The notes below the pieces were generated by a model. That model worked only from the letters and a program-made list of their open reading frames with translations. It was not told the DNA's origin and did no database searches. From Perkinsus olseni (lineage: Eukaryota > Perkinsozoa > Perkinsida > Perkinsidae): 64,000 bases of DNA. The position numbers were made by a program, and so were the translations under genes. Below are positions 3,139 to 57,373 of this stretch, piece by piece (position 1 is the first letter of the stretch; each line of letters starts with the position of its first letter). The stretch spans positions 62,001 through 126,000 of the forward strand of contig JABANP010000031.1 of the NCBI GenBank assembly GCA_013115135.1, in the 5' to 3' direction.

Positions 3139-3667
3139 TTAAAACAAACGTCGGCGATTCATCTCCTCCTCCTGCTTAGCCCTCTGCTGCCTCTTCCGCC
3201 TCTCCCGTCTGCCTCTAGTCCTCACGCTGGCTCTGGAAACTCCCTCCCTTTCGAGCGCGGGGGGCTGCGGATTAGTGGAACTGAAGGCGATGCTGTCTTC
3301 AACAATAGGGCAGCAGTCCAGGAGTACTGACCCCCCATTATTGTTCCCCTGACGGCGCTGTCGTTTCCTCGGCTTCCGGGGCTGTTGCACCGGTTTTCGG
3401 TCCTCCCACGACTTCTTACGTTTGCGGGAAGAAGCCTCAGGAGCACCGAGAGATGCCTGAGAATCGACCGCATGCCAGGATTGAACCCACGACCTTCCGG
3501 TGTGCAACACTCACATTATTATCAACCCACTGTCCTCCTCCTCCTCCCCTCAACGTGGACCCACTCGGACTGTAACCACCCGACTTGCTCGGCGAAGCCC
3601 CTCCCTCCTTACCGGACGCTTCGTTCTGTAAAATCAATTTCAAGAACGCTCTCAGGGCTGAATTCAA
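3139..3667 (-). CDS. Small basic protein, C-terminal exons
   Basis: The function is not recognised. Two minus-strand exons join in phase 0 across the intron at 3457-3514 (donor GTGAGT, acceptor TTCTCAG). The encoded tail is rich in Lys and Arg, with KRKK-type clusters, and ends in NRRRLF before the stop at 3139-3141. The upstream exon is Gly/Ser rich. An acceptor-like sequence (TTTTACAG) near 3628 suggests at least one more upstream exon, so the true start is unknown and the listed upper limit is only the first in-frame Met. A nuclear or nucleolar basic protein is possible, but that is inference from composition only. Confidence 0.5.
3457..3514 (-). repeat. Introner-like intron, tRNA T-arm family (sense)
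   Basis: This 58-nt intron carries CCGGAAGGTCGTGGGTTCAA followed by TCC, the 3' anticodon stem, variable loop and T-arm of a tRNA. It has a GTGAGT donor and a CTCAG acceptor, and its removal joins the flanking exons in phase 0. Confidence 0.8.
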
Positions 3668-4846
3668 CGACTAAACGACAAGGCAACGACGCTCTTGAGA
3701 CTCAGGAAGGGGAGTTGTTCATTGTACAGCCAAAGCATCTCTCAATGGGCCTTTACTTTCAACAACCCCCCCGACCTCAGCATGGAACCAATCAGTTGCC
3801 CACCTCGTCACGGGAAGTAGCCCGGCCTCTCTCAGTCGCTACCGATATACCATCCCTAGCTCGTCGCCAAGTAAGAGAACGCTCAGCCGCTAAGTAGTCC
3901 TGGCAAGGGGAATCTTGAACTCTTACAGTTCCTCAGCGCTTACCTGCGCAGTGAACCTGCTGCTTGGCGGAATCGGTTTGTTAGACCGGATCAACTGCAT
4001 GACCAAATGGTTGCGTAAACGCCTGAATGAGCAACTTTTTCCGCCAAAATTTTGGTACGACAAAATCACAATACCTTTTGTGTAGCCCTCCCTGGTGTCT
4101 AACATCAGTGCCAGAGGCGAAGGCTCCTGTCAACCCGCCAGCATTCACTCGACCCGCCGCCCCTCTCTTTCTACCCCTCACGGAACCTCCGGCTACACTA
4201 CCTAACCGAACGATTATACACGGGGAAAAACGGCTCAAGTGGTGATGTCCGTAGCATATGCAGCAAACGTATGAGTTGGAGGAGGATAGGGTACGCAGAT
4301 TCTCCCGAGCATACCAATAAGATGATAACTCTCGTTCAGCCCCTGACTCTTTATATCAGGGGGGACTGTGATCGCTATTTCATTATCAAATCCGGGATGC
4401 TCTCAGAATTGGACTGAATCGGGTCAACCCCGACGGCGAGAGACGTTAAAACTGCATTGTTGTCGGCCTTCAAGTCCGGGACTTGTACTTCGAATGAGAC
4501 GGCGTGATGATGATGATGATGATGATGATGAGCAGATGATAATCTGCCTGAGATCTCTGTATAATCATCACCCCTGACCTCCACAACTACTTCCACCGAC
4601 GGGTCCACCCTCCCATCGTACTCGGCAAGCGTAATACTGTAAGAGGAGGAGGAGGACGATTGGGGATGGTGTGGAGGGGTTACGGAGGAGGATGTTAACC
4701 CCGACTGACTATGTTGGTGAAATGCCTAACCGTCCAACTGCCCAATCTGACCAGTGGGCATGCGTGCAACCCCTGAGGGGCACTGATTGGTCGCGTGATG
4801 AGTGTTGAGTACGAGATTGGTACAACTGAGTCCGTAGCCATCTTGA
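3668..4846. other. No gene resolved
   Basis: This probably contains upstream exons of the gene ending at 3139 and 3' flank of the gene ending at 4847. I could not assign coding exons. It includes a perfect GAT microsatellite at about 4505-4530 and one copy of the GCATGCGTGCA motif near 4757. Confidence 0.3.
4505..4530. repeat. (GAT)n microsatellite
   Basis: There are nearly nine uninterrupted GAT/ATC triplets. Either strand would encode a homopolymer (Asp or His), and neither frame is supported as coding. Confidence 0.9.
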
Positions 4847-4852
4847 CTACAG
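4831..4852 (+). other. Spliced-leader-like 22-mer
   Basis: The sequence TCCGTAGCCATCTTGACTAC plus AG matches the dinozoan spliced leader pattern (DCCGUAGCCAUUUUGGCUCAAG, from general knowledge). The match is exact over 13 of the first 14 positions against that consensus, with the mismatches concentrated in the last third. It lies antisense to the 3' end of the LARP7-like gene, overlapping its stop codon, with no plus-strand gene evident downstream. It could be an SL relic or chance. Confidence 0.4.
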
Positions 4853-7800
4853 TTCTACAATGGCTGGGTTAGACAGTGAACCCACAAGGCGGCCTTCCAG
4901 GACGGTATATCTACCCTTCGATCCGCCCCCGCCGCCTCCAGCAGCACTCCACCCTCCACCAGCTCGCCGCCTTCGTTGCCGCATTCTATCCACCAGGGAA
5001 TGGATGCTCACTCGTTGAAGATGGGCAGCACATCGCCGCTCCGCCTGGCTCAGGCCGTATCTGAGATCCACGCAGGTTCGATCCCACCACATGACACTTC
5101 TCAAAAACTACAGTTTCCCGGTCCCTGGCGGCCTCCACTCTTTATTGCCACTCGCACAGTCCGTCCACGCCGTCGGCTTGCCACCTCCACCGACATCATC
5201 CTCCATCCCTCGCGGACCAGCAATCACTCGAGGAAATGGCTGAGCAGACAGTGTCCAACGCTCCCATCCGGAAGGTCCCGGGTTCAACTCACAACATGGA
5301 AGGTTTCCTTAGCCGGCTTGAACCGTCTCATCGGCATACTCATCCGCTCACCACCACCCTTCTCCTTCTTCATACCCAGCACCTACCACCAAAGATACGC
5401 GTATCTTCCCGCAGCCGCAAGATTCCATCCGTCCTCATCACTTCCTTCCAATACTGCGTACACTCTGCTGCGTTCAACTTCGTTATCACCGGCCGTACCA
5501 ATCCATCAACCGTCAGTAACGGACCCGAGTTCCTACAACCAGGAGAACCAGCTAACCTCATGACATCAATCTCGCTCGCCCAGCTAATCGATTCCACTGT
5601 TCATCATATAACAAAATTTGTATCGCGCACTTCTACCGATCGAGAAAGGATAACAGATTTTAATTGCCCAGAAAAATTCCTGCTGAAAATTTCGTCCGGA
5701 ATAACAGACGCGTGCCAGGATGAATCTTGAGATGAGCGGCAACACATACAGATGAGACTACGCAAAAAGTGGAAAAATGTTCTGATCTTATCCCCACGAT
5801 TCCTTCGCACAGGAAGATATTTCCTGTCGCATCTTAGGATACCATTAACCACTATACTGATAAATTTCCGTTCGCCGAGCTATTGTGATGAGATGGCTTG
5901 GCAAACTAGAGGGAACCGGGCATACATATTTTTCGAAACACCTCTCAATCTGCTGTCGAAAAAAACCGCATGAAACACTCACTGCTTCACGAGAAACGTC
6001 AAAGGCGGATGAGAAGTGGGGGACACCTTCCTCAAACCTTACTCGAGGTCCATGGCAGCAAAATCCCTCTCCTTCTTACTGCGCAGTCTGATATATGCTT
6101 CCCAATTATTACCACCTCTATCTGATAAGACGGTAATAACGTCCCAACCGAGAATAGAGCCGGGGACCTTTCGTATGATAGCCGTAAAACTCACCTCCCT
6201 GTGGCGGACGGATGTCCACATGCTGCGACACTGTGCTGTGACCCGCCCATTGTCGCAATTGCAGTAGACTAACCGGTGGTAATCCGCTCAGATGAAGTAA
6301 CTATACAAAAAGCGCGCGCCCGATTGATCGATCACAGGCGGTATCCCGGTGTCAACAGCTCTCACTGAAAGCTTCCGTATGACTGAGGGCACCTCCTGCT
6401 TGATCTTTTCATTCTGAAAATGACAAATCAACAACTTGAAAATAAACCGTAAAAATTGCGGAAAAAATCAAAAAAATTCTAAAAATGGCAGTAGCAAAGA
6501 CCAAACACTGTTTCCCTCCCTACTGTATCAGCATAACTGAAGATATCATCTTGAGGCTTCGGTGCCACTCCCGCACCGTACTGGGTGTCAGAATCACTAC
6601 TCGAGGAGGAGGACGAGTACGAGGACGAGGTGTCAGAAAGTGATGATGATGACGACGACGACGAAGAAGTAGAGGAGGAAGAAGAGGACGATGATTCATC
6701 ATCATCATCATCATCATCGCTGGTTGATGATGAGGTGGTTGGTGATGGTGCAGAGGTTATCGAATTGGAGGAAGTAGAAGGGGCTGGAACTGAGGAGGAA
6801 TAAGGCCTTCGTTATGCAGGGGAGGAGGGCTTAGTGTATTCATATGCTATTATCATTATCCGATTCCACAATTGGTCACCTCTAGTCGACCGACATCAAA
6901 GATATTTTTCCGCTATTGACATTGATCAACCTAAGATACGCACGCTCCAAGTTAGAGCCTAGTGCGTATCCTAGGATACGCCCCCAACCCCGCAAAAGCA
7001 GGACTTTCCGAGAGCGGACAGAATACCTCCATTGAACTCCGACGATGCTGAAGAAGGTGGTTCGTCAATTTTCCGCCTTTTTCGATCGTCTTCCTCGCGA
7101 ACTTGTTTCCCAGGCGGTGGTACAGTACTAGTGCTCCCCTCCGACCTAAAACAGCAGTGTCAGGGATCGAACCCGGGACCTCAGCTCACTTCCCCTCATC
7201 ATCCTCTATTGACCACTTGGCGGGGTCAAATCCCTCAGCATAAGCATGATGATTGTCAATCTTGTTAACATTCTTCGCTCTGACATCCGAAAGGTCCCCG
7301 GATCGAGCCCACCGCCTTGAACTTTTTACTTATAGTATGTATCCCGTAAATATCTGAATTTCCCACCAGTGATGACCCTCAACCTTCGCCCGTCCGAACG
7401 AATCTCCCAATCCTTCGGCCACCTTCCTACAAAGCGGTTGGACATGGGAAAGTAGCATAAAAACATATAGGGTCATCAAGGAAGGACAAACTCTCACCAT
7501 CAAGCTGCCTCTTGGCCGTACGGGCCTCCTCCTCCGTATTATATTCGACGAAGCAATAACCAAGGTTGACACCTGAGGGTACGCAGGTTCGATCCCGGCA
7601 TCTGTCATTTTTACATACCTGTTCGAGGGTGATTTGGGATAGCGATGTAATCCACTGTAACCGCAAAACCAAACTTCTCTCCCGAGGCCACACTCTCTAA
7701 GACATCCCATAGCATGCAATCTTGCTCATCTTGCATTTCCTCAACGCTCTCACTTATCATATTCCTATCAACATTATAGGGCAGGTTCTCCATATAAACC

Positions 7801-8475
7801 GTCCTCCTCTCGAAGTCAGCCACTTGACCATCAATGATGATATTACCCAGCATCGGATACAGCCGAAAATTACGACTCACGTATCTTTTCCCTCTAACAA
7901 AAACCTTTGCTGTGCGCCAAGATACCTCCATTATCCTTTCTTACTCCTTTTCACTCAATACCAGCACTTCACTGTTGTTGATTGCAGCCAGCAGCTCCGT
8001 TTCAGTGCACCTGGCAGCCACCTACTCAGGAAAAATGCGAGAAATTTGCTGGAAATTCCCAAAATTTTCCCGAAAAATTCAGGAAAAACTAGTAGTTATT
8101 ATTACCCCAACTTCCGTAGTTCGCCCCATGTGATGATATCATCAGTGGGCACCCAAGGTTGACCATCGCCTTGGACGTCACGTTGGGCCAGCTCCTCAGT
8201 GATGTACCGATCTCTACGGAGATTTGCATCCGAAAACTGACCAATTCAACCTATTCCGTATCTTGCATGAGTCAAGCTTGGATACTCACATAAAACTCAA
8301 GCTGTTCCTGTATTCGGTCCAATCTATTCATCTGGTTACTCATCGCCGTAACGACACTTCTCGATCGACTCGGGCCGCGGTGTCGATGATGATGACGCCG
8401 CGCCGGTGGTGGTGGCGGCGGCGGTCTAACCCGACTGGATCGCTGTTCATGTCTATCATCCGCTCGCCTCTGCAT
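4847..8475 (-). CDS. La-related protein, LARP7 type (La motif + RRM + Ser/Asp linker + second RRM)
   Basis: LARP7/p65/Pof8-type proteins bind the 3' ends of pol III RNAs (7SK, telomerase RNA, U6). In order the exons encode: a Pro-rich start; a La motif (IQEQLEFYFSDANLRRDRY, then WVP); an RRM with RNP2-like TVYMENLPYNV, IPNHPRTG and RNP1-like GYCFVEY; a charged helix; a long Ser/Asp tail without Met (6524-6790); and a second RRM-like domain (LLHLSGLPPV, then WEAYIRLRSKKER). A QYW motif follows, as in the LARP7 C-terminal xRRM. The C-terminus is Arg/Gly rich and stops at 4847-4849. At least 11 introns rejoin in phase, including five T-arm elements. Exons between about 5600 and 5990 and around 7820-7970 are unresolved. 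Start is the Met just before the Arg-rich segment; an upstream exon is possible. LARP7 type is inferred from domain order and motif similarity. Confidence 0.8.
5061..5111 (-). repeat. Introner-like intron, tRNA T-arm family (antisense)
   Basis: This 51-nt intron of the LARP7-like gene has GGGATCGAACCTGCG on the sense strand, so the tRNA motif is inverted. The acceptor is GATCTCAG. The junction is phase 2 (CT|A) and joins GTGKL to YGLSQAERR. Confidence 0.85.
5240..5292 (-). repeat. Introner-like intron, tRNA T-arm family (antisense)
   Basis: This 53-nt intron has a GTGAGT donor and a TGCTCAG acceptor. It contains TTGAACCCGGGACCTTCCGG, the inverted tRNA T-arm plus anticodon-stem segment. It rejoins exons in phase 0. 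Confidence 0.85.
5383..5441 (-). repeat. Intron with GATACGC palindrome
   Basis: This 59-nt LARP7 intron (phase 0) contains the perfect 16-bp palindrome AAGATACGCGTATCTT. The same GATACGC core recurs in the intron at 6791-7026. Confidence 0.75.
6122..6194 (-). repeat. Introner-like intron, tRNA T-arm family (sense, diverged)
   Basis: This 73-nt intron (GTGAGT donor, TTATCAG acceptor) holds ACGAAAGGTCCCCGGCTCTA then TTC, a diverged T-arm. Its removal joins RPPQG to DRGGNNWEAYIRL in phase 1. Confidence 0.8.
6301..6365 (-). repeat. Introner-like intron, ATCGATC/GCGCGCGC family
   Basis: This 65-nt intron contains GATCGATCAATCGGGCGCGC followed by GC. It lies between exons encoding VIRKLS and LLHLSGLPP (phase 0). 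Near-identical cores occur in introns at 9062-9123 and 16270-16339. Confidence 0.8.
6414..6523 (-). other. Intron with in-frame stop, LARP7-like gene
   Basis: This 110-nt intron starts GTAGGGAGG and ends TTTTCAG. Reading through it would terminate at 6479-6481 and hide the second RRM. Splicing joins the Ser/Asp linker to NEKIKQEVP in phase 0. Confidence 0.7.
6791..7026 (-). repeat. Intron with GATACGC foldback
   Basis: This is a 236-nt intron. It carries a foldback of CCTAAGATACGCAC (6930-6943) against GTGCGTATCCTAGG (6962-6975), with one mismatch in 14 bp, followed by another CTAGGATACGC. Confidence 0.75.
7146..7189 (-). repeat. Introner-like intron, tRNA T-arm family (sense)
   Basis: This intron is only 44 nt: GTGAGCTGAGGTCCCGGGTT continuing CGATCC, ending TTTTAG. 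The B-box fills about a quarter of it. It rejoins in phase 2. Confidence 0.9.
7280..7329 (-). repeat. Introner-like intron, tRNA T-arm family (antisense)
   Basis: This 50-nt intron contains GGGCTCGATCCGGGGACCTT plus TCGG, an inverted T-arm and anticodon stem. It rejoins TYYK to AKNVNK in phase 2. Confidence 0.85.
7573..7618 (-). repeat. Introner-like intron, tRNA T-arm family (antisense)
   Basis: This 46-nt intron (GTATGT donor, CCCTCAG acceptor) splits the RRM between PRTG and VNLGYCFVEY in phase 1. It contains GGGATCGAACCTGCG. Confidence 0.9.
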
Positions 8476-8729: not shown

Positions 8730-12537
<3,808 letters not shown>

Positions 12538-12569
12538 TGATGGGGATCCGCGACGGAGACCTCAAAGAG

Positions 12570-12884: not shown

Positions 12885-14449
12885 TCATGGCAGCGGACGG
12901 ACTCTGTTGAGTAATTCCTCTAGTATCCCTAGAGGTAGCCCCATAACACTATCACTACCTCCTTCGATACTCTTCACAAACTGAGAAAACGTAAGGTAGA
13001 GCAAGATTTCAAGACGCTAACCTGTCACCCACCGGCCCCATGACGTCATCCACGCAGAAACTTCCCGCACATCGGTAAACCAAACTGTCGGGGTCCGACA
13101 GAATATCATCAATCACATCCTCGGGGATAGGATGAAACCTGTCCACACTTCGACTCCAACTCCGTCGCACACAGACTTATCCCGCTGCACTAAACAGAAC
13201 CATGATACACTAAATCGAAGAGCAGCCACTGCGGGAGGGGGCCAAAGATCCGAACTTTGAGATGCAAATACAGCAGACGGTAACGAGTCGCTTAGAGTCG
13301 CTATATAAGATTGCAGCCCCGTGATAATGAAGCAACCACATGCGGACCGAACAAGTTAGACGACACTAAGACGAGTGGAGCCTCGGCGTTAGACTACCAC
13401 GTAACAGCCTTATGTCGTCCAACCTCTCTCCTCCCATTCAGGCAATCAACTACTACGATAGCCGTCCATGTGACAACTCCCTTCCCTCCAGAATAATCCA
13501 GCATGAACCTACGAAAAATAGGAGAAGCTCCATGGCCAACCACAGCCCGTGAAGAATGGCAACAAAGCTCATCCACCATCTAGACTCACATGGACGGAAG
13601 GTTCCCAAAACCTCACTTCATTATCACTCTCGGCAACACGCCATCATCCGGACCGTGAAGGCATAAGGGAAGTAGAAAACGTAGCACAAAAAAACTCATA
13701 ACAGTCGAGCACAAATTTTTCGATACCCATGCTCATCAACTTTTGTTACCTCTTCGCCTCTTCTGCGCTCTCCGGTTTTTCCCGCAGTTCGTCCTCGCAA
13801 ACAGCAACCTGCAAAACGCCGGAATCGAACCCGGGACCTTCGGATAGCCATTCGCGCACCATTCCTACTAACCAGGGAGTGTTATCTCTCACAGGCACTC
13901 TCATCAAATGTAATTGTCATCCATCCCGAATAGTTCCTATCCAGTCAGGAAGAGGCATGCAGGCCCCCCCCTCCTGGCTCGACGACAGCATGTTTTACAT
14001 ACCTGGTCCGCACACAAAAGCACAACATCCATGCCTTTCAGTCGGCCCTCCAACACGTCAGCCTTCCCACAGGCAATCGCAACACAAGTATCCTGAAAAA
14101 CCAACAACACCCCCAAATCTTCGCCGTGCGCGATAACAAAGATTCCCACTCCGGAGCAGGCAGCGTAAGCTCAATCAACGATAAACCTACCTCCGGGGTA
14201 TCAGCCCGGATAGCCTTCTCATCGATCCCCGGATCCATGGCCGCTGTATAACGGCAATTAGTAGCATCCAAAACCTTTCGCCGGCCCAAGGACTGGCTCC
14301 CTACAGCGAAACAGGACCGCCTCTTCCCTTTCCCCCCTCCTCCATGTACTACCCAGAACCACGTCATTGCACACCATCAGCTCCTTCAACCTCCTCGACG
14401 CTGCTGGGAGAGGGAACTTCAAAGTCGAGCGGGTCATTAGGGATGCCAA
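12885..14449 (-). CDS. Maf-family nucleotide pyrophosphatase
   Basis: Maf (ASMTL-N) proteins hydrolyse non-canonical or excess nucleoside triphosphates in the cytosol. Spliced exons give PAASRRLKELM (cf. the SPRR-type motif), the segment AMDPGIDEKAIRADTPE (conserved DE), then KADVLEGRLKGMDVVLLCAD with QVAV (the GAD-T-V strand). These are followed by LREKPESAEEAK, SGGKGVVTWTAIVVVD with GRREVG, and finally SIEGGSDSVMGLPLGILEEL. It stops at 12885-12887. Introns rejoin in phase and include a T-arm element (13809-14002) and a CAAGATT element (12981-13032). The classical SGSPRR loop reads AASRR, so activity is not certain. The region between about 13140 and 13390 may hold another exon. The start is the first Met of the exon, and 14437 is an alternative. 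Confidence 0.85.
12981..13032 (-). repeat. Introner-like intron, CAAGATT family
   Basis: This 52-nt Maf intron contains CGTCTTGAAATCTTGCTC (sense). It joins DDVMGP to FVKSIEGG in phase 0. Confidence 0.8.
13809..14002 (-). repeat. Maf intron with tRNA T-arm (sense)
   Basis: This 194-nt intron contains ATCCGAAGGTCCCGGGTTCG followed by ATTCCGG, close to its acceptor TTTGCAG. It joins LLCADQ to VAVCEDE in phase 0. Confidence 0.85.
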
Positions 14450-15002: not shown

Positions 15003-17530
15003 TTACATTCTGCGTCGTTGCTTAGGCCTTTCCCTCTCGACTTGGGATGTACTATCTACTGAACGAGGGTAATCCATCCACCCAGGTTCGATCCCTGGAC
15101 CCTACCCTTCTTAGAAGGATCCTCAGTCGACTCTTTCTGTCTCTCATCCATAATCTTCTTAACCCGCATTTGTACCTAAGAGTCCCCTTCCCTCCAGCAG
15201 ACCAACCCATCATCCCTCTGTACTTGTGCCTCCTCCTCCGCCTTAGTAGCAGCAGCAGTGCCCCAGTCTATCAGCTGCTCATCGTCCATAACCGGCATGC
15301 CTGAACCATCTCTTCCCTTCCCATGGGACCAGATACTATTACTTGGGACGTTCGGATGATAGCGTGAAAGATGCGTTCCCTGCGCCTGGGCCAGTTGCAC
15401 GGCTTGCATTTGAGCCTTAGCGAACGCTGCCAGCTGAATATAAAGATGCCGTGACAAGGATTCGAACCCGAGGTCTCCAGACCCCGATACCAAAATACTA
15501 CCCCGCCCATGTATCTTGCAGCCATAAACTGATTCTGATAATATCTCGCCGCCGCCACTGCTCGTCGGTGATCCATCAGTGAGTCCAAGAACCTTAAACA
15601 ACATCAACATGACCACCACAGAGCCCACTGCCCGCCAGTGATGCCTATCGAACTTTCTCGATCCTATTTTCCGTTCCCCATCGCCTCACCTAGTCGTAGG
15701 AGCTGTGCCGTGTCCAGCAGGGACGAACTCAGGAGCCTTCGCGTTCAACTTCATAGGCTCAGGCTTCTGACTCTTGCTCTCCTCTTGCGGGACTATCGTC
15801 AATGGTGTCCCTGGGTTAGCAGCGCTAGCTGCCGCTGTCGATAGTCCAGGGGGTGACTGTGACCCCAATGCTTGGGACTGCGGCAGCTGAACAAAAAACA
15901 TCCCCCGCTCGGATCGAACCCGGGGCCTCTATGTATCACCTCCACTGGAGCCGGCGCGCTCCTTTGCGACGAGTTCTCGTCTTCCACCGGCGATTTCCTT
16001 CCTACGAGGTCGTCCTTCTTATCATCATCGACCAGGATGCCTAGAATACGTTAAGGAAATCCAAGTTTGCAAGATTTCAAGGCGTGTCTTACTGACACCA
16101 TTGAAGAGGACGCCAGCCAGTTCTGTATCACCGGACACTTCTGCTGCTCTGATCATAGCCTCATAGCTGCCAGAGGAAAAGTGTCAAAAAACAGAATAAA
16201 ATTTCTTCGCTCCGCCTACGTCTGTGGCTCGATAATGACCCCTGCCAACGTGAGGGACTGCAAGACTTCCTGGCAGACAGCGGATGCCTACCCACGATAA
16301 GGCAATCGATCACGAGGGCGCGCGCAGATGGGCGACTACCTCACTGGGGAAGTTGTCAATGGCTGATTGTAGAGCCTTGCGCGCATCTTCGTTCTTCAAC
16401 GAAATACCTAGGGACACCGACAGATGGTCAACGGACTGCCCGCCTTCTGAAAGAAATCGTCACGCGCCACAAAATTAGGCATGCAATTGCGCAATGCTCT
16501 CATGAGCGACCTTCAGAGATATCATCTCACCTGCTCCCTTCCCGACTTCCTTTACAGAACCGAACCCAGGCGGGAGTGGCGGCGCGGTTTTAACACCTTC
16601 CAGAACATGAGCTCGAGAAATCTTCGCTGTGCGCACAAGATACGCTGCGCAACTCCACCCACCGCGTTTCGGAGATTCAGACGACTTTTCATCCCCCGCC
16701 TTCTGCTGCTGCCCGACGCTGCGAGAAGCAGCTACCACTGTAGCACGCGGGGAGGTTCCAAGGCCTTCCAACTCAGTGGGGCGGTCCGAAGCGGCTGAAA
16801 ATCAATAATTCGCTCCGTTGGGGTTGAACCCGGGTCAAATGCTACCGGCAGTAGCGCTCCTGATTATATCCTCCTTATCTAGCCGCTCCCCACGCAGCTG
16901 TTCACCCTGAAACCCCAAGCACTATCGCCATTGCACGCCACTGCGATGACACTACCGCTTGAGCTGGACGGTGGTGTTGCTTGAGATAAGTTGCCCGGCT
17001 ACTACGACTGTTGCTGCTTCCCGACGGATGCACAGCCCGGAGCGCTGGAGAGGCTCTAGAACTGCATCGCGATGATGCTGTGGGTGGTATTATCTGCGGC
17101 TAGGCTGCATGAAGGGTCATCCCTCCTCCCCATTACCCTCTTCCTTGTAGGGCTTCCGAAGGGCCTCGGTTGGGCTGGACTGACGGTAGTAATATTCAAC
17201 AAATCATCATCAGCAGTAGACGGCGGCACTTCACCGTCTGACTGGGCCTCCGACGACTGTCGGCCTTGTGTGAGCTGAAGGCGACGATGACAGCAGCCCG
17301 GAGAGGTCATGAACCCCACCTTGAGGTAGATCGCAGTGACGATGATAGGGATGAGGATTCTCAGCAACCAGGTGACGGCACTAGAAATCTGTCAAGTGAA
17401 AATTTGTGCTACTTTAACGACTGTAACCAGTCATTACCTGGAATACTAGAGTAGTCCCTTGTGCAGTGTTCTGGATAACGAAGGGGGAGTCAAGATACTC
17501 AGCAAGGAAAGCCATCATTGCTGAGAGCAT
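15003..17530 (-). CDS. Membrane-anchored protein with PAM2-like motif
   Basis: Product family is not recognised. The N-terminus (MLSAMMAFLAEYL...) leads into one hydrophobic segment (LLRILIPIIVTAIYL), likely a membrane anchor or signal anchor. A long Ser/Pro/Ala-rich, probably disordered region follows. It contains KLNAKAPEFVPAG, which fits the PAM2 motif (L..NA..F.P) that binds the MLLE domain of poly(A)-binding protein. A helical Ala/Gln-rich tail and a basic C-terminus end at 15003-15005. At least ten introns rejoin in phase: 15059-15105, 15434-15501, 15887-15939, 16041-16098, 16167-16219, 16270-16339, 16447-16530, 16795-16845 and others upstream. One exon junction near 15200 is unresolved. 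The combination suggests a membrane-tethered mRNA-binding partner, which is inference. Confidence 0.75.
15059..15105 (-). repeat. Introner-like intron, tRNA T-arm family (antisense)
   Basis: This 47-nt intron contains GGGTCCAGGGATCGAACCTG then GG, an inverted T-arm with paired stem. It joins EDPSKK to VDSTSQ in phase 1. Confidence 0.9.
15434..15501 (-). repeat. Introner-like intron, tRNA T-arm family (sense)
   Basis: This 68-nt intron contains GGAGACCTCGGGTTCGAATC then CTTGTCACGGCATC, a T-arm with a preceding variable loop. It joins ARYMGG to LAAFAKA in phase 0. Confidence 0.9.
15887..15939 (-). repeat. Introner-like intron, tRNA T-arm family (sense)
   Basis: This 53-nt intron contains GAGGCCCCGGGTTCGATCCG. 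It joins SAPAPVE to LPQSQAL in phase 0. Confidence 0.9.
16041..16098 (-). repeat. Introner-like intron, CAAGATT family
   Basis: This 58-nt intron contains GCCTTGAAATCTTGCAAAC. It joins AGVLFN to GILVDDD in phase 1. Confidence 0.85.
16167..16219 (-). repeat. Introner-like intron, TTCGCTCCGCC family
   Basis: This 53-nt intron begins GTAGGCGGAGCGAAGAAATT. It joins IIEPQT to YEAMIRA in phase 2. Related cores occur near 14820, 49109 and 54655. Confidence 0.85.
16270..16339 (-). repeat. Introner-like intron, ATCGATC/GCGCGCGC family
   Basis: This 70-nt intron contains GCGCGCGCCCTCGTGATCGA then TTG. It joins DNFPSE to EVLQSLT in phase 0. Its orientation is opposite to the copy at 9062-9123. Confidence 0.85.
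16447..16530 (-). repeat. Introner-like intron, CGCGCGCCACGAAATT family
   Basis: This 84-nt intron contains TAATTTTGTGGCGCGTGACG. It joins EVGKGA to the residue completing EGGQSVD in phase 1. Confidence 0.85.
16795..16845 (-). repeat. Introner-like intron, tRNA T-arm plus CGGAGCGAA core
   Basis: This 51-nt intron contains GACCCGGGTTCAACCCC followed directly by AACGGAGCGAATTA, the core of the TTCGCTCCGCC family. It joins IIRSAT to AASDRPT in phase 1. Confidence 0.85.
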
Positions 17531-28490: not shown

Positions 28491-29467
28491 ATGGCCGATC
28501 AACGTACTGTTGGGGATATGCTAGCTGACACGCTGATAACAGCGATGAAGGAGAAAGGAGGAGCAGTTGGACAAAGAGATTGAGAAGTATCTTAGGTTGA
28601 TCCGCGCAAGATCCGAAATAGGTCAATTTGTGACATCACTCGTGCAATCGTCCAATCCGGACATATTGATCGAGCATTGTTTCCTCCGAGTGTTTATCCA
28701 ATCACGCTTCAGGTTGGACAATTTGAAAGAAGATGACATTGAAGAGATCAGACGAAAGAGGTTGGAGGAGATGAAGGAAGACTATAAGGCCAGTCTGGTG
28801 GGTGATGATGAACAGTCGTCGCTGGACGAGTGTTAAGTAATGCCTCAGGAGCTCCGTTCGAAGGGACATGGTGAATACACGGAGTTGCATTCCGAGAGGG
28901 AGTTCTTTGAAGCGAGTATCTTTAGGTCGTTTTGGTGCCACATGAGTGTTGTTAGGCTGCCAAAGATTCCAGGCTCATGGTTTGTCACTTTTATAGACCG
29001 ACCACGTGGCGATGTCAGATTGTAGATAAGTAGGTCCCCGGATCGATCCCCGGTCAAGTCATTTTTGTTGTTCCCTTAGACACTTGACCGTTCTAGCAGA
29101 GAAGTACATTGGAACCAGGTTTGTCAAGATCAACGCTGAGAAGGTGAGGGCTTCGCAATACCATCTACTCCACATCTCCGTTTCTTAGTCCCCGTTTTTA
29201 TGTGACCGATTCAGAATTATGATGCTGCCTACGATGATGCTGGTGAAGGATGGTAAGGGCGGGGTCCTTCGCTGTCGGCTTGAGGGCACTACAGGCCCCT
29301 TCCTCTCACGGCAGTCTCTATGGCTGCTCCCATCAGCGTGATAAGGTCGATTTTTGGTAGGTAAGACGGAGCATTCTATCATCGGCTTCGATGAGTTTGG
29401 CGGTGGAGACGACTTCGACACCGATGCCATTGAGGAGGTGATGGTGACACTGGTCTTGCTAGGCTGA
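28491..29467 (+). CDS. TXNDC9 / phosducin-like 3 protein
   Basis: TXNDC9 (PhLP3) is a thioredoxin-fold cofactor of the CCT chaperonin acting in actin/tubulin folding. Spliced exons give LDNLKEDDIEEIRRKRLEEM, then SKGHGEYTELHSEREFFEAS, VCHFYRPTTWRCQIVDKHL, YIGTRFVKINAEK, SPFLCDRFRIMMLPTMMLVK with DGK, and IIGFDEFGGGDDFDTDAIEE. It stops at 29465-29467. This matches the family block by block, including its lack of a CXXC. Five introns rejoin in phase; one (29030-29079) carries a tRNA T-arm. The N-terminal 25 codons read one base out of frame with the helix, so the first exon junction is unresolved. An insertion of about 8 residues (GKTEHSI) precedes IGFDE. Confidence 0.9.
29030..29079 (+). repeat. 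Introner-like intron, tRNA T-arm family (sense)
   Basis: This 50-nt intron starts GTAGGTCCCCGGATCGATCC then CCGG and ends CCCTTAG. It joins QIVDK to HLTVLAEK in phase 2. Confidence 0.9.
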
Positions 29468-30609: not shown

Positions 30610-33840
<3,231 letters not shown>

Positions 33841-46670: not shown

Positions 46671-46762
46671 GCCTGTACCGTGTGTACTCGGGCACTTCTC
46701 TGCTCAGGAGCTCCCGCCTGTTCGCGTTGAGAAATAGCAAGATTGCAAGATTATAAAAGATA

Positions 46763-47438
46763 CTACCTGAGTCTATCCTCTCTACTAAGCGAAAGAAAGA
46801 CGGCCGATGACAGCGGTTTGACAGGCGGCTTCGGTTTCCGCTGTATCGTCACAGGCGCTGGTTTGTTAACGTGAACCGTTGCTTCAGCTGCTTTCTTCCT
46901 CTTTTCTGAACAAAGCAAGATGTCCGGCCTAGGGATCGAACCCGGGTGGAGAAATAGGGTATTCAGCCAATACGCCCATTGTCTCAACTAACATCGGTTG
47001 TCGCCCAAACTCTAAAGCGTTCAAAGGGACTCTCTGCTGCGCAAAATTAGAAATCGATTTAGCCTTTGCAAAGCACAGCGGGGAAGGGCTACTCCCTCCC
47101 AATGGGATGCTAATTGTTCTTCTCTCTTCCTCACGCACGACGTTCCGATCGGAGCTCTTCTGCAGCTGAATCTAAGACGTCCATTCAATACAGTGCACGA
47201 CGACGCTCATTTCTGATTCACAGGCATGCTGAAATTAGAACTCTCCCGCTCGGTTTTTGTGCAGCCCTGTGAAGGCCCTCTCGCGATGCTCTTTCGAGTC
47301 CGATCCGCTGCACTTGGTTTCGAAACGATGGATTAGACGATAATATTGATACCACTCCATCCGTTCTTCGCCCCCTCCCTCACCTCTAGCCAATTCATGC
47401 CTCCGCAAGAGTACGTTCATCAGCTCAGTCACCCCCAT
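46763..47438 (-). CDS. Unrecognised gene with a tRNA-like intron
   Basis: Minus-strand exons include EWYQYYRLIHRFETKCSG, QQRVPLNALEFGRQPMLVET and KRKKAAEATVHVNKPAPVTI then QRKPKPPVKPL. The last is Lys/Pro rich. The junctions are not settled: the frame before the tRNA-like element does not connect cleanly to the Lys-rich exon. Confidence 0.4.
46921..46990 (-). repeat. Probable intron with tRNA T-arm (sense)
   Basis: It contains CCACCCGGGTTCGATCCC and ends TTTGTTCAG. A possible donor is GTATTG near 46988. A GATGT / ACATC pair flanks the element at roughly tRNA acceptor distance, suggesting a more complete tRNA relic. Confidence 0.55.
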
Positions 47439-51879: not shown

Positions 51880-52133
51880 GCGCTCGGATCTTTGCGGTTA
51901 TGTCTCGAGAAAATCAGCTAATGCCTTCTTTTCTTTCGTGGAATATCTTCTGCGCGTGCGTGCAAGACAATTTCGTGGCGCGCGAGAAGTGTAAATGAGC
52001 GTTTCAGGAACCCCAAAAAGAGATCTACACGAGAATCATTCCCTTCCCATAGGTTCAGCGCCTCATCATGGCGTGGGAGTGTTAGCACAAAGTTAAACCG
52101 AACCTACCGAGCTCGACAAGCGAGAGCTTGGGG

Positions 52134-52154
52134 AGTCACCAGCGGGTGGTGACT
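52134..52154. repeat. Inverted repeat in intergenic DNA
   Basis: AGTCACCA, a 5-nt loop, then TGGTGACT. More complementary pieces (CCAGGACT / AGTCCT / TCAGTAGAA-like) follow between 52160 and 52280, so this spacer could fold extensively. Confidence 0.7.
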
Positions 52155-52888
52155 GAGCGGCGGCAAACCCAGGACTGAGCCGAGTTTTTTTCTGTTCAGT
52201 AAATCCGTCCTGGGAGCAACTCGAGGAGCAGTCCTTGGATCGATCCTAGGACTGGTTTATTGGTCTTCTACTGAACAGCCCGACTGGTTCGTGGACGCAA
52301 GGCTGATTAGATTTCCCCCTCCCCGTGTGGACGTCGGGTCGTTCCTATGGGTAACCCTGAAGGCAGCGTGGTGGTGGTAGGCTACTGGTCATGGTACGCT
52401 CAACTCTTGACTCTTAAGTGTGCTCCTGTGTTGGTTAGGACTGCTCACTTCCTTCACCAATAGAAGGATCTTGAAGGAGCTATACCATCCTAAAGCAATG
52501 GCAGGGTCTGACGTTATCGTGGGGAGAGGGTCATGATACAGAAAGTTCGTGGAAAAAAGCGGTTTCATATTTTATGGGGAAATTATCGCGACGTGTCTTT
52601 TTTGCGATGGTGATGTAAAGGTAGGCGTGGATGAGTGGGTGAAGCATCCAGCCGGTGTCGCTTCGCCATAACTCATCAATTTAATGTGCACGGTGCTTTT
52701 GTTGCTATCTGTCCTTCTACGTAGTCCACCGCTAGAATTACGCGGTCGACGCATTGGGCAAGCTTAAAGCTCGACTAAGAAGTAGACCGACTTAGGTGTG
52801 AGACAGGGCGGTACCTGAGTGCTCAGGATCTTCATGACCTCAAGGGGAAACTACTGGAAAAATTGGCAACCTCGCAAGTAGTTGAAAG

Positions 52889-53524
52889 ATGTACCAGCTC
52901 AACGCAATTGCCGTTGTCGGACTCTCACTGATCAGCATGTTGTCTCATGTCCTTCTCGTCGTCTTCACCATCTTCCGATCGGCCACATCACAGTCCCGAG
53001 AGGGCAAGTCAGGCGCCATCAGAAAGCTCCGCACTGCTGTTGTTAACATCAATAACCAATTAAACGACGTCGTAGAGGCCCTCAGTGAGTTGCTAGGGGA
53101 AAACCCTCCCTCGAACGACCTCCCTGAGGGCGTGGCGTCGGAGGAGGGCGTGGTGGTCGATCCCGAATGGCTTAAGAAAGCTATAGATGTTATGTATGGT
53201 GGAAGAGATCCGACTGCGCACAGCGAAGGATATGCGAAAGATACTCCTACGCACAGAGAAGGATATGCGGAAGATACCATTGCGCACAGAGAAAGATTCT
53301 CCTTTTCGTCGTTGCGGTTGAAAGACTTCCGTGAGCAAGTACTCTCCTTGTTCACCGTCGATGAGGATACCGCAGCATGGCTATGGGGTTGTGCTGTTTG
53401 GCTTCTTATGTTGGTCATTGATATTGGCCTTTGTACGGTGCTTATGATATACGCTAAGGGGGGTAGTATTGATGTTAGGGACACTGTGAGTATGCAGGAT
53501 TGGATACTATCACAAGTAAGTTAG
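52889..53524 (+). CDS. Two-TM membrane protein with 11-residue repeats
   Basis: A single open frame of 211 codons. A hydrophobic N-terminus (VVGLSLISMLSHVLLVVFTI) is followed by a helical region (RKLRTAVVNINNQLNDVVEA), then two full and one partial copies of an 11-residue repeat (THREGYAEDTI type, 53213-53300). A second membrane segment (WGCAVWLLMLVIDIGLCTVL) follows. No family recognised. The last codons may run into an intron (a GTAAG follows QVS-proximal sequence), so the C-terminus could be longer. Confidence 0.6.
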   Translation: MYQLNAIAVVGLSLISMLSHVLLVVFTIFRSATSQSREGKSGAIRKLRTAVVNINNQLNDVVEALSELLGENPPSNDLPEGVASEEGVVVDPEWLKKAIDVMYGGRDPTAHSEGYAKDTPTHREGYAEDTIAHRERFSFSSLRLKDFREQVLSLFTVDEDTAAWLWGCAVWLLMLVIDIGLCTVLMIYAKGGSIDVRDTVSMQDWILSQVS

Positions 53525-54825
53525 GGTTGTTAGTGGACGTCTCTCGACTCTCGTTACTGTTGTCGGGATTGATCCTGGTCGTAGTCCGATTCTGATAGTG
53601 TTGGTGCATCCAAAGATCAGCCTGGGGAGAACTGAATAGGTCAAAGTGGATATTGTAAAATGCTGACTGCTCGTACACTCAAAAGCATCATCTTCTTGCA
53701 TCATAGACTCGACCGAACTCAAGTGTTCGGAGCTTGCTCGTATCCCAAGTGCAACCACGTCTCGTTGAAGGTCGGCGGGGATCTACCATTATAATATACA
53801 CCATCTCTCGGGCATTGATGATTCGATCTATCCTGCGTACATAGAAAGCTCCCATCGTGTTGTTATTCAGCTGTCGATGAGTTGCCTGCTGGCCTTATCC
53901 CTCCGACTGCTGTCCTTGTTTGTGGCCCCTGAAGACAGCCTTGCTGCCCATCTCATGGACGCCGCCCTGCTCACGTTGAGGGTTCTCGGTGTTGTCACGA
54001 TGCTTGTTAACCAGGGCGATGCCAGGGGGAAACAGGTAATAGGATGTTTCGAAAGGATATGTGGCTGGTCCACCGTGAATCGCTTTTCTGCACGTTGATA
54101 CAACTAGTCGAATGGGTGGATTGATAGGTTTTTATTGATAGCGCAATTTTGAAGTCAAAACACGTTAGAAAGTTGCGCAGGTAGGAGATGGCAATCTTCG
54201 TATTATCATTTGTATTATGTTTTTCGGGGCTGTGAGTTGATAATAAATACATACATGTCAAATACTTCTTGATTCAAGAATCTTGAAATGGATTTTTGTG
54301 TATGGTCTTAATGCTACTGTGCATGTATGATGGGCCTTGACTAGACTACCCAGAAGTGAGCAGGAAGATAAAATTTCATTTTCAGGAGAAGTTGTCGGCC
54401 CCCGTTCGGTCATCTTCACACGCAAGGTCAGCGACTCCAACAAGGTATCATAGAAGGCAAGGAACAGTGAGAACGCCAGAATTCAGTGAGGGGGGAGAAA
54501 TGTGCTTACTGGGATTCGAACCGGGGTGCGAGGTGCCTGTTCGTCTAGCGTGTGCCTTTCACGCAGCTAGATGTTGCTTTATCGTCTCCTTTTGTGATCA
54601 TCAGGATCGCCGATTGTAGAGGGTTGTCGGCCGAGAGTGGGTTCGTCGTGAACGGAGCGAAGCGAAGCGATTCATGTTTTATCAATTTACTGTAGCATGA
54701 GATATTAGTTGTTACTAGTGAATCAAGTGAAGTTGAGTTGGGTGGGATTGAACTTGGGTCGGTCGTATGCAAGTCCATGGTGGGTCCCGGTTAAGCTGAT
54801 TGCCGATAGGTTTAAAGCTTGTTTA
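53525..54825. other. Region with two isolated tRNA T-arm copies
   Basis: No gene resolved. Inverted T-arms lie near 54508 (GGGATTCGAACCGGGG) and 54749 (GGGATTGAACTTGGG), just upstream of the EEP gene, perhaps in 5' UTR introns. A short TM-like frame (SCLLALSLRLLSLFVAPEDS) lies at 53877-54098. Confidence 0.4.
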
Positions 54826-57373
54826 ATGATGAGTAGTGCTACTACGGCTCCAATTGGAAAGGTTACGAAAAGGCGGGTGAGCACCAGTAAAGGGACGATG
54901 GAGGATCTCACTGTACTCACCTACAATGTTGATACCGCTATCAAAGATATGCCTCAACGAACCAAGATACTGATTGAGGTAATACAACCTAATTACCCAG
55001 GTGGCACGATTGTAGATAGTAGAGGGGTAAGGGATTCCGTCAGGAAATTTCTCTGCATAGCGATTTTTCTGGCGGTTATTTAAGGGCTCGTAGTTGTGCA
55101 ATATGTTTTTTATAGTGCCCGCTGTAATCGGGATCAGCAACCTGTAGGAGTGGAAGCGGCGTTATCTTTCCTGAAGCTTTCGGAAAGATTTAACTTGGAC
55201 GTATCAGCCGAATCGATGACATATAGCTAGATTTCGTGTTTGATAAAACTTGAGTGGTTCTTCGCCTGCTACACCATTGCTGCCTCTCAGTGTCTCCAAA
55301 ATCGTGATTATGATGTCGTATGTTTACAAGAAGTATTCAGTAGTGCTATGAAGGAAGCCATCACCAACGGCCCTCGAAGATCAATATTATGTAATGCTAG
55401 TGGCCCTGCTCCTCCGCTCCTCCGATACTTCTTGTATCTTTCTCAGATCTTATCAGCAGATCATTCCGCGCCATTCTACCCCTTCCAGTCGTTCCTACCA
55501 TCGATGCTGCTCACCATCGTGGCCAATGCTTTTCCACCGTAAGTAAAGGCCGCTGGGGGCCTCCTGATTTGCCTGGGAATAGAGATCTGACCACTCTTCT
55601 ATTTTCGTGGCGCGCGAAATATCTCCCGTCCGATCCATCACTAGAAGCTGGCTTCCTTGCATTCCGCATCTCTTTGCTGCCGGCGAGTATACTGGGCACG
55701 TTGTGAAGGACGTGCGATGTGGAAATAACTGGCATTCGTGTCTTTCTCAGGATTCTGCGGGCCCTGGCTTTCATCGCCGCAATTCTCCTCTGCCCTCCGG
55801 TTATGAGGTTGGCCTCACAATATGTGAGTCTGGCTAGCGGCATGGTCTTCTTCGTCGTCTCCTACTCCGAAAGGTCCGGGGTTCGAATACCTGAATGTCC
55901 TTACCGGGGGTCGAACTTGCGCGAGTTTCCACCCTCAGGTTTTCCACTGTCTCCAATACGCCAGCGCCTTCCACAGCGAAGGTCGTTCTCAACCTTTCGA
56001 CTACATGGGCCTCACGATCCTTCTCAATAAGAAGAGGTTCAGTGACGCACAAGTAAGGAAAGTGTCGCGCGCCACGAAATTCATTCTGGCTTCGTCGGGT
56101 CAGGTTGAATGTGCGGAGCCGTTTCAAGTGCAAGGTTATACTGCCCCAGTTACCGGATGGGGTTGGATATGGTTGTGGGTAAGCAACTCCGTCACTGCGC
56201 CACGAAATTATTAAGTATCTTTCCATCTGTACCAGGTGGAATGGACCTTCCTTCGTCCGGGGTATCTGATTGTCTCCGGCGAGCTCAGTGGCGCGGCTGG
56301 TCAAATTCTAACTATAGTGGACCTTCATTTTGTTCTTGGAAGGGAGAGAGATTGTGTGAACCCTAACAGGAAGGCGCAGGCTGACGAGATACTCTGGGCC
56401 GTGGATCAGTAGGTCCCGGGTTCGATCCCCGGGAGGGTTCATTCTACCTCTCTTCGAAAAGGTACTCTCCTAAGAACTCCCAAGTTATCGTGTGTGGTGA
56501 TCTCAATTGCTCGACTTTCACTTTGGATGAGGACAAGATGGATCACGTAGAGCTGATGGTGAGAACGGACTTGTGCATGCGTGCAATTTTATTGTGTCCC
56601 CTGTCCCTTGGTAGATGTTTAGTCGTAACAAGTATCATGATGCTCTGAAGGTCTTCAATCCCGAGGCCGGCCGACTTCCTGACGACCAAATGCGTAAGGT
56701 CGTCACCAAGGCCCTTGCGGCAAGGCATCGCGATGAGGGCGTTGAGAAATCGCAAGAGAGCAAGAATCCTGATAAATCTGCCGATGAGAAGAACGACGAG
56801 TCGCTTGAAACAGAGATCGCTGATGACGAGCCGAAGATTCAAGAGATAAGCGAGGACGAAGCTCCACTAGTCGCCAAAGATACCGTTGAGGAAACGCAAG
56901 ATTGCAAGAAAGTGGCGGAGCTCGACTCGGAAGTCGAAGAATCTCTGGAACGCCTGAAGTTGCCGATCACTTGGGATGGGGTGAGTCGCCTCGAGCGAAG
57001 CGCTGCCGCAAAAGCAGCTTTTGAACGACAGGTGAACAACCCGAAGACGCGGATCAGCGATCCCGGTGCCGAGTTGCGCTGCGACTACGTCTTTCTGAGG
57101 GATGCACCAGAACCGGAGCTGAGGACGATCAAACTGGTTGAGAAGGAGGTTGGGCTAGGTTCACTCGTGCAAGGCTTCACAGCCATTCCTTGTCAGATGC
57201 GTATTGTGTTCGACGGGCTGACCAGTCCCGCTGAAGGCGTTGCTCCCCTTCCTATTGTTTCTGATCACTACGGGGTTCAAGTAAGACACTTTACTGAGCT
57301 GATTTCCCAGGCGCTGCGGCTTCTCAGGTCTCCTTCGCACTGGAGAGAGTGTCGTCGTGAAGGCATCGGATGA
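54826..57373 (+). CDS. EEP-superfamily phosphodiesterase with hydrophobic insert
   Basis: Endonuclease/exonuclease/phosphatase fold hydrolase (sphingomyelinase, TDP2 and inositol phosphatase relatives). Active-site blocks in order: DLTVLTYNVDTAI (Asn), YDVVCLQEVFSSAM (metal-binding Glu), MGLTILLNKKRF, LTIVDLHFVLG (cf. THL), VIVCGDLNC (GD-N) and PIVSDHYGVQ (SDH). Between the Glu block and MGLTILL are three hydrophobic stretches ([40 protein letters not shown]) not usual for the fold. They suggest membrane association. Introns placed in phase: 54979-55290, 55539-55644, 55687-55750, 55824-55938, 56053-56103, 56179-56235, 56409-56461 and 56559-56612. The start is the first of two Mets; the stop is at 57371-57373. 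Substrate is unknown. Confidence 0.85.
55539..55644 (+). repeat. Introner-like intron, CGCGCGCCACGAAATT family
   Basis: This 106-nt intron (GTAAGT donor, ATCACTAG acceptor) contains ATTTTCGTGGCGCGCGAAAT. It joins ANAFP to SWLPCIP in phase 2. Confidence 0.85.
55824..55938 (+). repeat. Composite intron with two opposed tRNA T-arms
   Basis: This 115-nt intron joins RLASQY to VFHCLQYA in phase 0. It holds CCGAAAGGTCCGGGGTTCGA then ATACC in sense, and GGGGGTCGAACTTGCGC in antisense about 25 nt later. Confidence 0.85.
56053..56103 (+). repeat. Introner-like intron, CGCGCGCCACGAAATT family
   Basis: This 51-nt intron contains GTCGCGCGCCACGAAATTCA. It joins RFSDAQ to VECAEPF in phase 0. Confidence 0.9.
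56179..56235 (+). repeat. Introner-like intron, GCGCCACGAAATT variant
   Basis: This 57-nt intron contains ACTGCGCCACGAAATTATTA. It joins GWIWLW to VEWTFLR in phase 0. Confidence 0.9.
56409..56461 (+). repeat. Introner-like intron, tRNA T-arm family (sense)
   Basis: This 53-nt intron starts GTAGGTCCCGGGTTCGATCC then CCGGG, an intact 5-bp T-stem and loop. It joins WAVDQ to YSPKNSQV in phase 2. Confidence 0.93.
56559..56612 (+). repeat. Introner-like intron with TGTGCATGCGTGCA
   Basis: This 54-nt intron contains TTGTGCATGCGTGCAATTTT. It joins HVELM to MFSRNKY in phase 0. Confidence 0.88.

What the first reader, a model, noticed from the sequence alone, without database searches (positions are those of the whole stretch)
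3457..56461. tRNA T-arm / pol III B-box sequences are the cores of very short spliceosomal introns
I find about 25 copies of GGTTCGATCC-type sequence (or its complement). In at least 15 cases the copy sits inside a 44-115-nt GT-AG intron whose removal restores reading frame in a recognisable gene (LARP7-like, PAP, Maf, PAM2 protein, TXNDC9, EEP). Many keep the flanking tRNA segment (ATCCGAAAGGTCCCGGGTTCG pattern). Both orientations occur. An intron of 44-59 nt cannot hold a tRNA gene, so these are 3' tRNA fragments or a short tRNA-derived element turned into introns. Introners are known in several protists; a tRNA-derived class is, to my knowledge, not described. The mechanism is inference.
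Basis: partly seen in the sequence, partly recalled or inferred. Interest (0 to 1): 0.93.

Follow-up and report, generated by a model that had tools for sequence, protein, structure and literature searches.

The report
Introns built from tRNA 3' ends
In the clam parasite Perkinsus olseni many very short introns (about 4 to 16 in a hundred in the sampled stretches) look like the back end of a transfer-RNA gene, in either direction, which points to a new raw material for making introns.

Summary
The window is Perkinsus olseni. It carries 27 tRNA-3'-end-like sites, 19 inside predicted introns (12 sense, 7 antisense). The exact core GGTTCGATCC occurs 1682 times genome-wide against 97 for the reversed control. 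In 174 kb, 31 of 48 sites lie in predicted introns, which are 12% of the bases.

The anatomy is a tRNA 3' end: about position 40 to C72-A73, then a T-run and no CCA. A profile built only from this genome's real tRNAs finds 30 sites, 29 of them among the 48. Introns with the element are no longer than others, so the element is the intron.

Against simple capture of tRNA fragments: T-stem halves pair no better than shuffled halves, while real tRNAs pair 93-100%. I found no target-site duplication and no empty site among 31 junctions recovered.

Best reading: a tRNA-derived introner family, inserted in either orientation by an unknown route. The novelty is the raw material. RNA-seq and sister-species comparison are still needed.

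The parts
5061..5111 (-). predicted intron, 51 nt, element antisense
5240..5292 (-). predicted intron, 53 nt, element antisense
7146..7189 (-). intron of the La-related protein 7 gene, 44 nt, element sense
   Evidence: excised in the published P. olseni protein
7280..7329 (-). intron of the La-related protein 7 gene, 50 nt, element antisense
   Evidence: excised in the published P. olseni protein
7573..7618 (-). intron of the La-related protein 7 gene, 46 nt, element antisense with GTATGTAAAAATG start
   Evidence: excised in the published P. olseni protein
11313..11358 (-). intron of a poly(A) polymerase gene, 46 nt, element sense; highest-scoring window site (40.2 bits); starts GTAATCGAAAGGTC = tRNA 35-48
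   Evidence: gap-free alignment of the spliced protein to solved poly(A) polymerases
11476..11563 (-). predicted intron of the poly(A) polymerase gene, 88 nt, element sense; exact borders uncertain
11742..11800 (-). predicted intron of the poly(A) polymerase gene, 59 nt, element antisense; an earlier run of the finder gave other borders
13809..13859 (-). predicted intron in a Maf-like gene model, 51 nt, element sense
15434..15501 (-). predicted intron, 68 nt, element sense (GGTTCGAATCC type)
15887..15939 (-). predicted intron, 53 nt, element sense
16795..16845 (-). predicted intron, 51 nt, element sense, lower score (22.2 bits)
29030..29079 (+). intron of a thioredoxin-domain gene, 50 nt, element sense
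   Evidence: domain match spans the junction
32181..32226 (+). predicted intron, 46 nt, element antisense; gene model here is weak
32520..32558 (+). element that looks longer than the usual 3' piece; called intron, not
46906..46988 (-). predicted intron, 83 nt, element sense
55881..55938 (+). predicted intron, 58 nt, with two element-like sites in opposite directions
56409..56461 (+). intron of a gene with published P. olseni and P. marinus homologues, 53 nt, element sense
   Evidence: published P. olseni and P. marinus proteins are continuous across it

Best explanation
A dispersed, intron-concentrated family of short elements (about 38 nt) in Perkinsus olseni, each a tRNA 3' end: variable region AGGTC, T-arm with the pol III B box, acceptor 3' strand ending C72-A73, then a T-run like a pol III terminator. 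Each element makes up most of one GT-AG intron of about 50 nt. Read in the sense direction, the T-run serves as the polypyrimidine tract and the 5' splice site often falls at tRNA position 35-38. Read in reverse, the same T-run gives a GTAAAA-like start. I infer that such introns arose when tRNA-like DNA was inserted into exons in either orientation and spliced out (introner behaviour). I also infer that the element pool exchanges sequence, so that the two sides of the T-loop are no longer matched. Shown: sequence anatomy, tRNA identity, intron location, both orientations, abundance. Inferred: insertion as the origin, the route of copying, exchange, and the roles of the T-run in splicing.
For: Genome counts: AGGTCCCGGGTTCGATCC with up to 1 mismatch 527 against 0 in the control; GGTTCGATCC-N10-CATTTT 162 against 0; GGTTCGATCC 1682 against 97; GTAATCGAAAGGTC 65 against 0. 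Location: 31 of 48 sites in predicted introns that are 20755 of 174000 bases, binomial p about 1e-17. tRNA identity: a profile from 9 isoacceptor groups of real tRNAs finds 30 sites over 14 bits against 0.6 in shuffles, 20 of 30 in introns; 29 of the 30 are among the 48 sites, and one of them is the tRNA-Glu gene itself. At sites over 11 bits, at least 3 T in positions 74-77 follow in 60% of 15 sense, 64% of 11 antisense and 45% of 11 intergenic sites, against 5% by chance, although the T-run is not in that profile. The element is the intron: median length 53 nt with it (n=73) and 52 nt without (n=415), p=0.18. 5' splice sites of 41 sense copies peak at tRNA coordinate 35 (7 copies), with 17 at 35-38. 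Both orientations: 17 to 14.
Against: T-stem pairing is at shuffled level (49-65: 52% against 50%; 50-64: 61% against 62%; 51-63: 43% against 48%; about 122 copies), which intact tRNA fragments would not show. No target-site duplication (mean run 2.08 against 2.02 permuted, n=73). No empty site: 31 of 32 joined junctions returned matches, none continuous across the junction. Few intermediate scores in introns: 0 of 168 other introns of 44-80 nt score over 2 bits, and only 3 intron sites of any length lie at 6-14 bits; continuing insertion and neutral decay should leave more. Fourteen of 48 sites lie outside predicted genes and 3 in exons, one of the 14 being a real tRNA-Glu gene; 9 of 20 further copies with 281 nt of context were not placed in an intron.
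Confidence: 0.6

Rival explanations
1. Selected binding motif: the B box (with the T-run) in introns is kept by selection because a protein such as TFIIIC binds it, whatever the origin of the introns.
For: Sharp conservation at 52-62 and 72-77 with near-zero information at 66-69; few intermediate scores in introns. In four gene-copy pairs, by my count on the alignments, 12 substitutions in 208 intron positions and none in the 40 B-box positions (2.9 expected, chance of none about 0.05).
Against: A binding motif does not explain AGGTC, C72-A73 and the T-run at exact tRNA spacing, nor shared longer pieces such as GTAATCGAAAGGTC (65 copies). The four-pair count is small, and detection itself needs an intact B box.
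Confidence: 0.25
2. Spread into existing introns: the motif moves among introns by gene conversion or template switching between copies and does not create introns.
For: Halves unlinked (between halves 2 of 168 column pairs with z over 3, within halves 12 of 91 and 8 of 66). One gene copy (L045) carries 18 extra nt including TAATCGAA (tRNA 36-43) and 5 intron substitutions, while its aligned exon flanks are identical to those of the other copy (L092). No empty site found.
Against: Introns with the element are not longer than introns without it, so the old intron body would have to be replaced each time. Within-half linkage is mostly between neighbouring positions (2 of 45 and 2 of 28 pairs at distance 5 or more), so the unlinked halves are weak evidence alone.
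Confidence: 0.25
3. Reverse splicing of a tRNA-like intron RNA into new sites, as proposed for fungal introner-like elements.
For: Gene bias and lack of target-site duplication and terminal inverted repeats, as described for fungal introners in Gozashti et al. 2022 (PMC9860276, passages).
Against: Antisense copies are as common as sense copies (14 and 17); reverse splicing keeps orientation. Ends are not shared between copies beyond the tRNA part.
Confidence: 0.05
4. tRNA-derived SINE, 5'-truncated, inserted by a LINE reverse transcriptase into genes.
For: B box and T-run; variable 5' ends.
Against: No conserved A box upstream and no shared tail after the T-run; no target-site duplication; elements concentrate in introns.
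Confidence: 0.1

Closest known systems
Introners / introner-like elements (Micromonas, Aureococcus, fungi and others; survey in Gozashti et al. 2022, PMC9860276, passages seen)
   Same: Many similar short introns in unrelated genes; strong gene bias; some known families also lack TSD and TIR.
   Different: Core is a tRNA 3' end with pol III signals; both orientations; only about 38 nt shared. The main text of that paper holds no 'tRNA' and no 'Perkins'; its supplement was not seen.
Amoebophrya introner elements (PMC7789003, passages)
   Same: Invasive intronic repeats in a related alveolate parasite; general transposase-mediated movement ruled out by its authors.
   Different: Those are described as non-canonical introns with inverted and direct repeats; here GT-AG and no such repeats at the ends.
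tRNA-derived SINEs (recalled, no call)
   Same: B box, pol III terminator-like T-run, dispersed copies.
   Different: No A box, no tail, no target-site duplication, concentrated in introns.
Introns gained by double-strand-break repair, as in Daphnia (PMC4202315, seen as a search listing only)
   Same: Short filler DNA without target-site duplication could become an intron in either orientation (recalled).
   Different: Filler there is not one recurrent sequence type (recalled).
Nuclear tRNA genes of this genome
   Same: Positions 43-50, 52-62 and 72-73.
   Different: Element lacks the 5' half, T-stem pairing is lost, cmscan finds none in the window.

Membership tests
Introner | similar introns in many unrelated genes | tested here: met
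   27 of 255 predicted introns up to 130 nt carry it: 17 of 108 in the window, 6 of 46 near it, 4 of 101 in eight other stretches; genome counts
Introner | segments are spliced as introns | tested here: met
   4 window introns excised in published protein models; transcripts themselves not tested
Introner | recent gain: presence/absence between alleles, strains or species | tested here: inconclusive
   none of 31 recovered junctions (of 32 sent) has a continuous match in the same genome; 40 of 46 candidates were scored; no other Perkinsus genome available
Introner | element boundaries coincide with intron boundaries | tested here: met
   length equal to other introns; 5' splice site at tRNA 35-38 in 17 of 41 sense copies; the ends vary from copy to copy
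DNA transposon / MITE | terminal inverted repeats and target-site duplication | tested here: not met
   no conservation outside about tRNA 40-78; no duplication above permutation
tRNA-derived SINE | A box plus B box, 3' tail, target-site duplication | tested here: not met
Functional tRNA gene | cloverleaf with paired T-stem and acceptor | tested here: not met
tRNA 3' end (sequence origin) | match to a profile made only from real tRNAs of the genome, with terminator at 74-77 | tested here: met
Reverse-spliced intron | single orientation relative to genes | tested here: not met
   17 sense, 14 antisense

The most novel reading that the evidence does not exclude
tRNA 3' ends with their pol III terminators are a recurrent, orientation-independent raw material for making spliceosomal introns. 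The T-run doubles as polypyrimidine tract or as GTAAAA start, so a tRNA end is nearly a ready-made intron either way round. In P. olseni thousands of introns arose this way, and the pool keeps exchanging parts at the B box.
Probability: 0.45. Interest if true: 0.88.

Novelty: new variant of a known kind. Interest (0 to 1): 0.78.

Why it matters
Where new spliceosomal introns come from is a long-standing question, and many known introners look like DNA transposons or have no recognisable source. A tRNA-derived class would give a source that every eukaryote has, explain why both orientations work, and make intron gain testable by comparing Perkinsus strains. The combination of a conserved B box with an unpaired T-stem is unexplained and may point to a pol III factor acting on introns.

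Tried and rejected
A first guess at the order of the pieces, GGTTCGATCCGAAAG, has 0 matches in the genome.

Palindromic B-box drift: a first profile counted each site on both strands, because GGTTCGATCC resembles its own complement; discarded and redone with one strand per site.

MITE/hairpin reading (core as a bare inverted repeat): rejected because AGGTC, C72-A73 and the T-run sit at exact tRNA spacing.

Insertion into pre-existing introns: disfavoured by equal lengths.

Old decaying family: disfavoured by the few intermediate scores. Against this, the other introns as a group score slightly above shuffled introns (median -12.0 against -13.6, p=0.0006), so weak remnants are not excluded.

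Independent fragments of intact diverse tRNAs: disfavoured by the pairing test. Registers with a 7-nt and a 6-nt loop were both tried.

Anticodon-stem pairing upstream: no signal.

Finding the parent tRNA genes: only 63 of 7618 first-look candidates were scored and they cover few isoacceptors, so parents remain unidentified.

Rfam on 15 further sources found one real tRNA-Glu and 5 weak matches under their gathering scores.

For the poly(A) polymerase gene no Perkinsus protein is named among the 24 hits at E up to 1e-40.

An apparent inverted duplication (L032/L033, L034/L035) was only overlap of neighbouring loci; L033 and L035 were left out of the training and copy sets.

Literature: the listings showed no report of tRNA-derived introners or of introners in Perkinsus. 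The library is open-licence PMC only, and one search listed 40 of 67 papers that hold the word.
Full report
WHAT AND WHERE. The window is part of a 61.5 Mb eukaryote assembly of 968 contigs. It is Perkinsus olseni, a parasite of bivalves: the La-related protein 7 gene at 6926-8331 encodes a protein identical over the shared part to a published P. olseni protein except at one exon end, and a second gene matches another P. olseni record at 246 of 248 residues.

CHECK OF THE OBSERVATION. GGTTCGATCC with at most one mismatch occurs at 19 distinct places (21 matches) against 4.6 expected. I wrote a gene finder with a coding model, splice-site matrices and an intron-length model, trained on the window and fetched stretches. 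In 174 kb not chosen by the motif (window, L061-L063 near it on the same contig, and eight 10-kb stretches at fixed coordinates of other contigs) it predicts 290 introns. A 40-position profile finds 48 element sites over 14 bits against 0.6 in shuffled sequence: 17 sense and 14 antisense in introns, 14 outside genes (one of them a real tRNA-Glu gene), 3 in exons. Introns are 20755 of 174000 bases, so the enrichment is strong (p about 1e-17). The eight other-contig stretches alone have 9 sites in 80 kb: 5 in introns, 3 outside genes, 1 in an exon. Of predicted introns up to 130 nt, 17 of 108 in the window carry the element, 6 of 46 in L061-L063 and 4 of 101 in the eight stretches. The window is richer than the genome: 10 exact cores against an average of about 1.75. 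Extrapolating from the eight stretches gives about 7,000 sites genome-wide; this is an inference from 9 sites. Twenty further copies picked by B box and CATTTT, each with 281 nt of context, fall in predicted introns in 11 cases (6 sense, 5 antisense) and not in 9.

SPLICING. The gene finder saw loci chosen for the motif, so I looked for outside evidence. Published proteins excise 7146-7189, 7280-7329 and 7573-7618 and 56409-56461. Solved poly(A) polymerases align without a gap across 11313-11358, and the thioredoxin domain match spans 29030-29079. These are gene models and homology, not transcripts.

ANATOMY. Aligned on the B box, conservation runs from about tRNA position 43 to 77 and is close to nil outside about 40-78: A44 G45 G46 T47 C48, a variable stem, GGTTCGATCC (52-61), a variable stretch, then C72, A73 and T at 74-77. 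No CCA follows position 73. The spacing GGTTCGATCC-N10-CATTTT occurs 162 times against 0 for the reversed pattern. The longer 5' piece GTAATCGAAAGGTC (tRNA 35-48) occurs 65 times against 0. To avoid circularity I built a second profile only from real tRNA genes of this genome (9 isoacceptor groups, positions 37-73). It finds 30 sites over 14 bits against 0.6 in shuffles, 20 of 30 in predicted introns; 29 of the 30 are among the 48 sites, and one is the tRNA-Glu gene, which is also in the profile. The T-run, which is not in that profile, follows in 60% of 15 sense, 64% of 11 antisense and 45% of 11 intergenic sites over 11 bits, against 5% by chance (42 sites at that threshold against 5.2 in shuffles).

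RELATION TO THE INTRON. Introns with the element have a median of 53 nt (n=73) and others 52 nt (n=415), p=0.18 (introns over 130 nt or within 25 nt of a stretch end were left out). If the element had landed inside existing introns they should be about 40 nt longer. In 41 sense copies the 5' splice site peaks at tRNA 35 (7 copies; 17 at 35-38). In antisense copies the intron often starts just beyond the T-run, which then reads GT..AAAA. So the same DNA provides splice-friendly ends both ways round. Four other recurrent short motifs that I counted are also denser in introns than outside genes, but less markedly so: 0.14-0.39 per kb in introns against 0.03-0.11 outside, while the tRNA core has 1.11 against 0.10.

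WHAT DOES NOT FIT SIMPLE CAPTURE. Across about 122 distinct copies the T-stem pairs 49-65, 50-64 and 51-63 form in 52%, 61% and 43%, no better than when 3' halves are dealt out at random, also when the better of two loop lengths is taken per copy. The 29 distinct real tRNA 3' parts in the fetched loci pair in 93-100%. After dropping 33 copies with the exact 18-mer used for fetching, 89 remain. Within-half column pairs with z over 3 number 12 of 91 and 8 of 66, between halves 2 of 168; at distances of 5 or more the within-half excess shrinks (2 of 45 and 2 of 28), so this is suggestive only. Scores are nearly bimodal: of 168 other introns of 44-80 nt none scores over 2 bits, only 3 intron sites of any length lie at 6-14 bits, and the number of intron sites stays at 31 for every threshold from 8 to 16 bits. 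An old neutral family should show more intermediates. As a group the other introns score slightly above shuffles (median -12.0 against -13.6, p=0.0006), so faint remnants are possible.

INSERTION TESTS. In 73 introns the direct match around the two splice junctions averages 2.08 nt against 2.02 when pairs are permuted: no target-site duplication. Of 32 joined exon flanks sent, 31 returned matches (one did not recover even its own exons; 40 of 46 candidates were scored) and none is continuous: no match crosses a junction by more than 9 nt. Several gene copies share the intron. One pair differs: L045 has a 65-nt intron and its copy on C274 (L092) a 47-nt intron with identical aligned exon flanks; the longer one has 18 more nt including TAATCGAA, plus 5 substitutions (the exact placement of the 18 nt is ambiguous). 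This is one example of exchange or renewal inside such an intron.

INTERPRETATION. I conclude that P. olseni has a tRNA-3'-end-derived, introner-like family. That the sequences are tRNA 3' ends and that they are the bodies of introns is well supported. That they created the introns is the best reading but rests on length and boundary arguments. Reverse splicing is disfavoured by the two orientations. Classical DNA transposition and SINE retrotransposition lack their marks here. Plausible routes, all inferred, are repair of breaks with tRNA-derived DNA, or reverse transcription of pre-tRNA 3' ends. The mismatched T-stems and the near-bimodal scores remain unexplained; recombination between copies and selection for the B box are the two ideas to test.

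LITERATURE. In passages of Gozashti et al. 2022 (PMC9860276), introners are described mainly as DNA-transposon-like, with fungal ones interpreted as reverse-splicing elements; the words tRNA and Perkins do not occur in its main text. The Amoebophrya paper (PMC7789003, passages) describes introners in a relative. A 2011 Perkinsus paper (PMC3101222, passages) reports P. marinus introns of 39-1622 bp, most under 100 bp. The listings of my searches showed no tRNA-derived introner; the library is limited to open-licence papers.

Noticed in passing
window 9187-9241, 16447-16530, 56064-56103 and elsewhere: Another dispersed short motif, AATTTCGTGGCGCGCGA-like: TTTCGTGGCGCG with up to 1 mismatch 8 times in introns, 8 outside genes, 1 in an exon in 174 kb (0.39 against 0.07 per kb).
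   Followed up: partly
window and L061-L071: Further recurrent short motifs GCGGAGCGAAGC, GCATGCGTGCA and GCACAGCGAAGAT, denser in introns than outside genes.
   Followed up: partly
L045 1481-1545 and L092: Two gene copies with identical aligned exon flanks but introns of 65 and 47 nt; the difference is 18 nt of tRNA-like sequence plus 5 substitutions.
   Followed up: partly
L080 (C27:79826-79986) and C79:27112-27637: The same two exons lie 66 nt apart in one copy and 431 nt apart in the other, so something of about 365 nt sits in or replaces that intron.
   Followed up: no
L044 467-572; window about 32470-32558: Copies that by eye look longer than the usual 3' piece, with a possible D-arm/A-box region; not listed by Rfam as tRNA.
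   Followed up: no
L019 (C823), L029 (C179), L030 (C778): Long tandem arrays of tRNA genes (Arg-TCT, Thr-TGT, Ile-TAT), many slightly different.
   Followed up: no
window 7894-7944: The published La-related protein 7 model uses a different exon end near here than my model (20 alignment columns).
   Followed up: no
window 52225-52260: Imperfect palindrome around GGATCGATCC at 52237, not scored as a member of the tRNA-like family.
   Followed up: no
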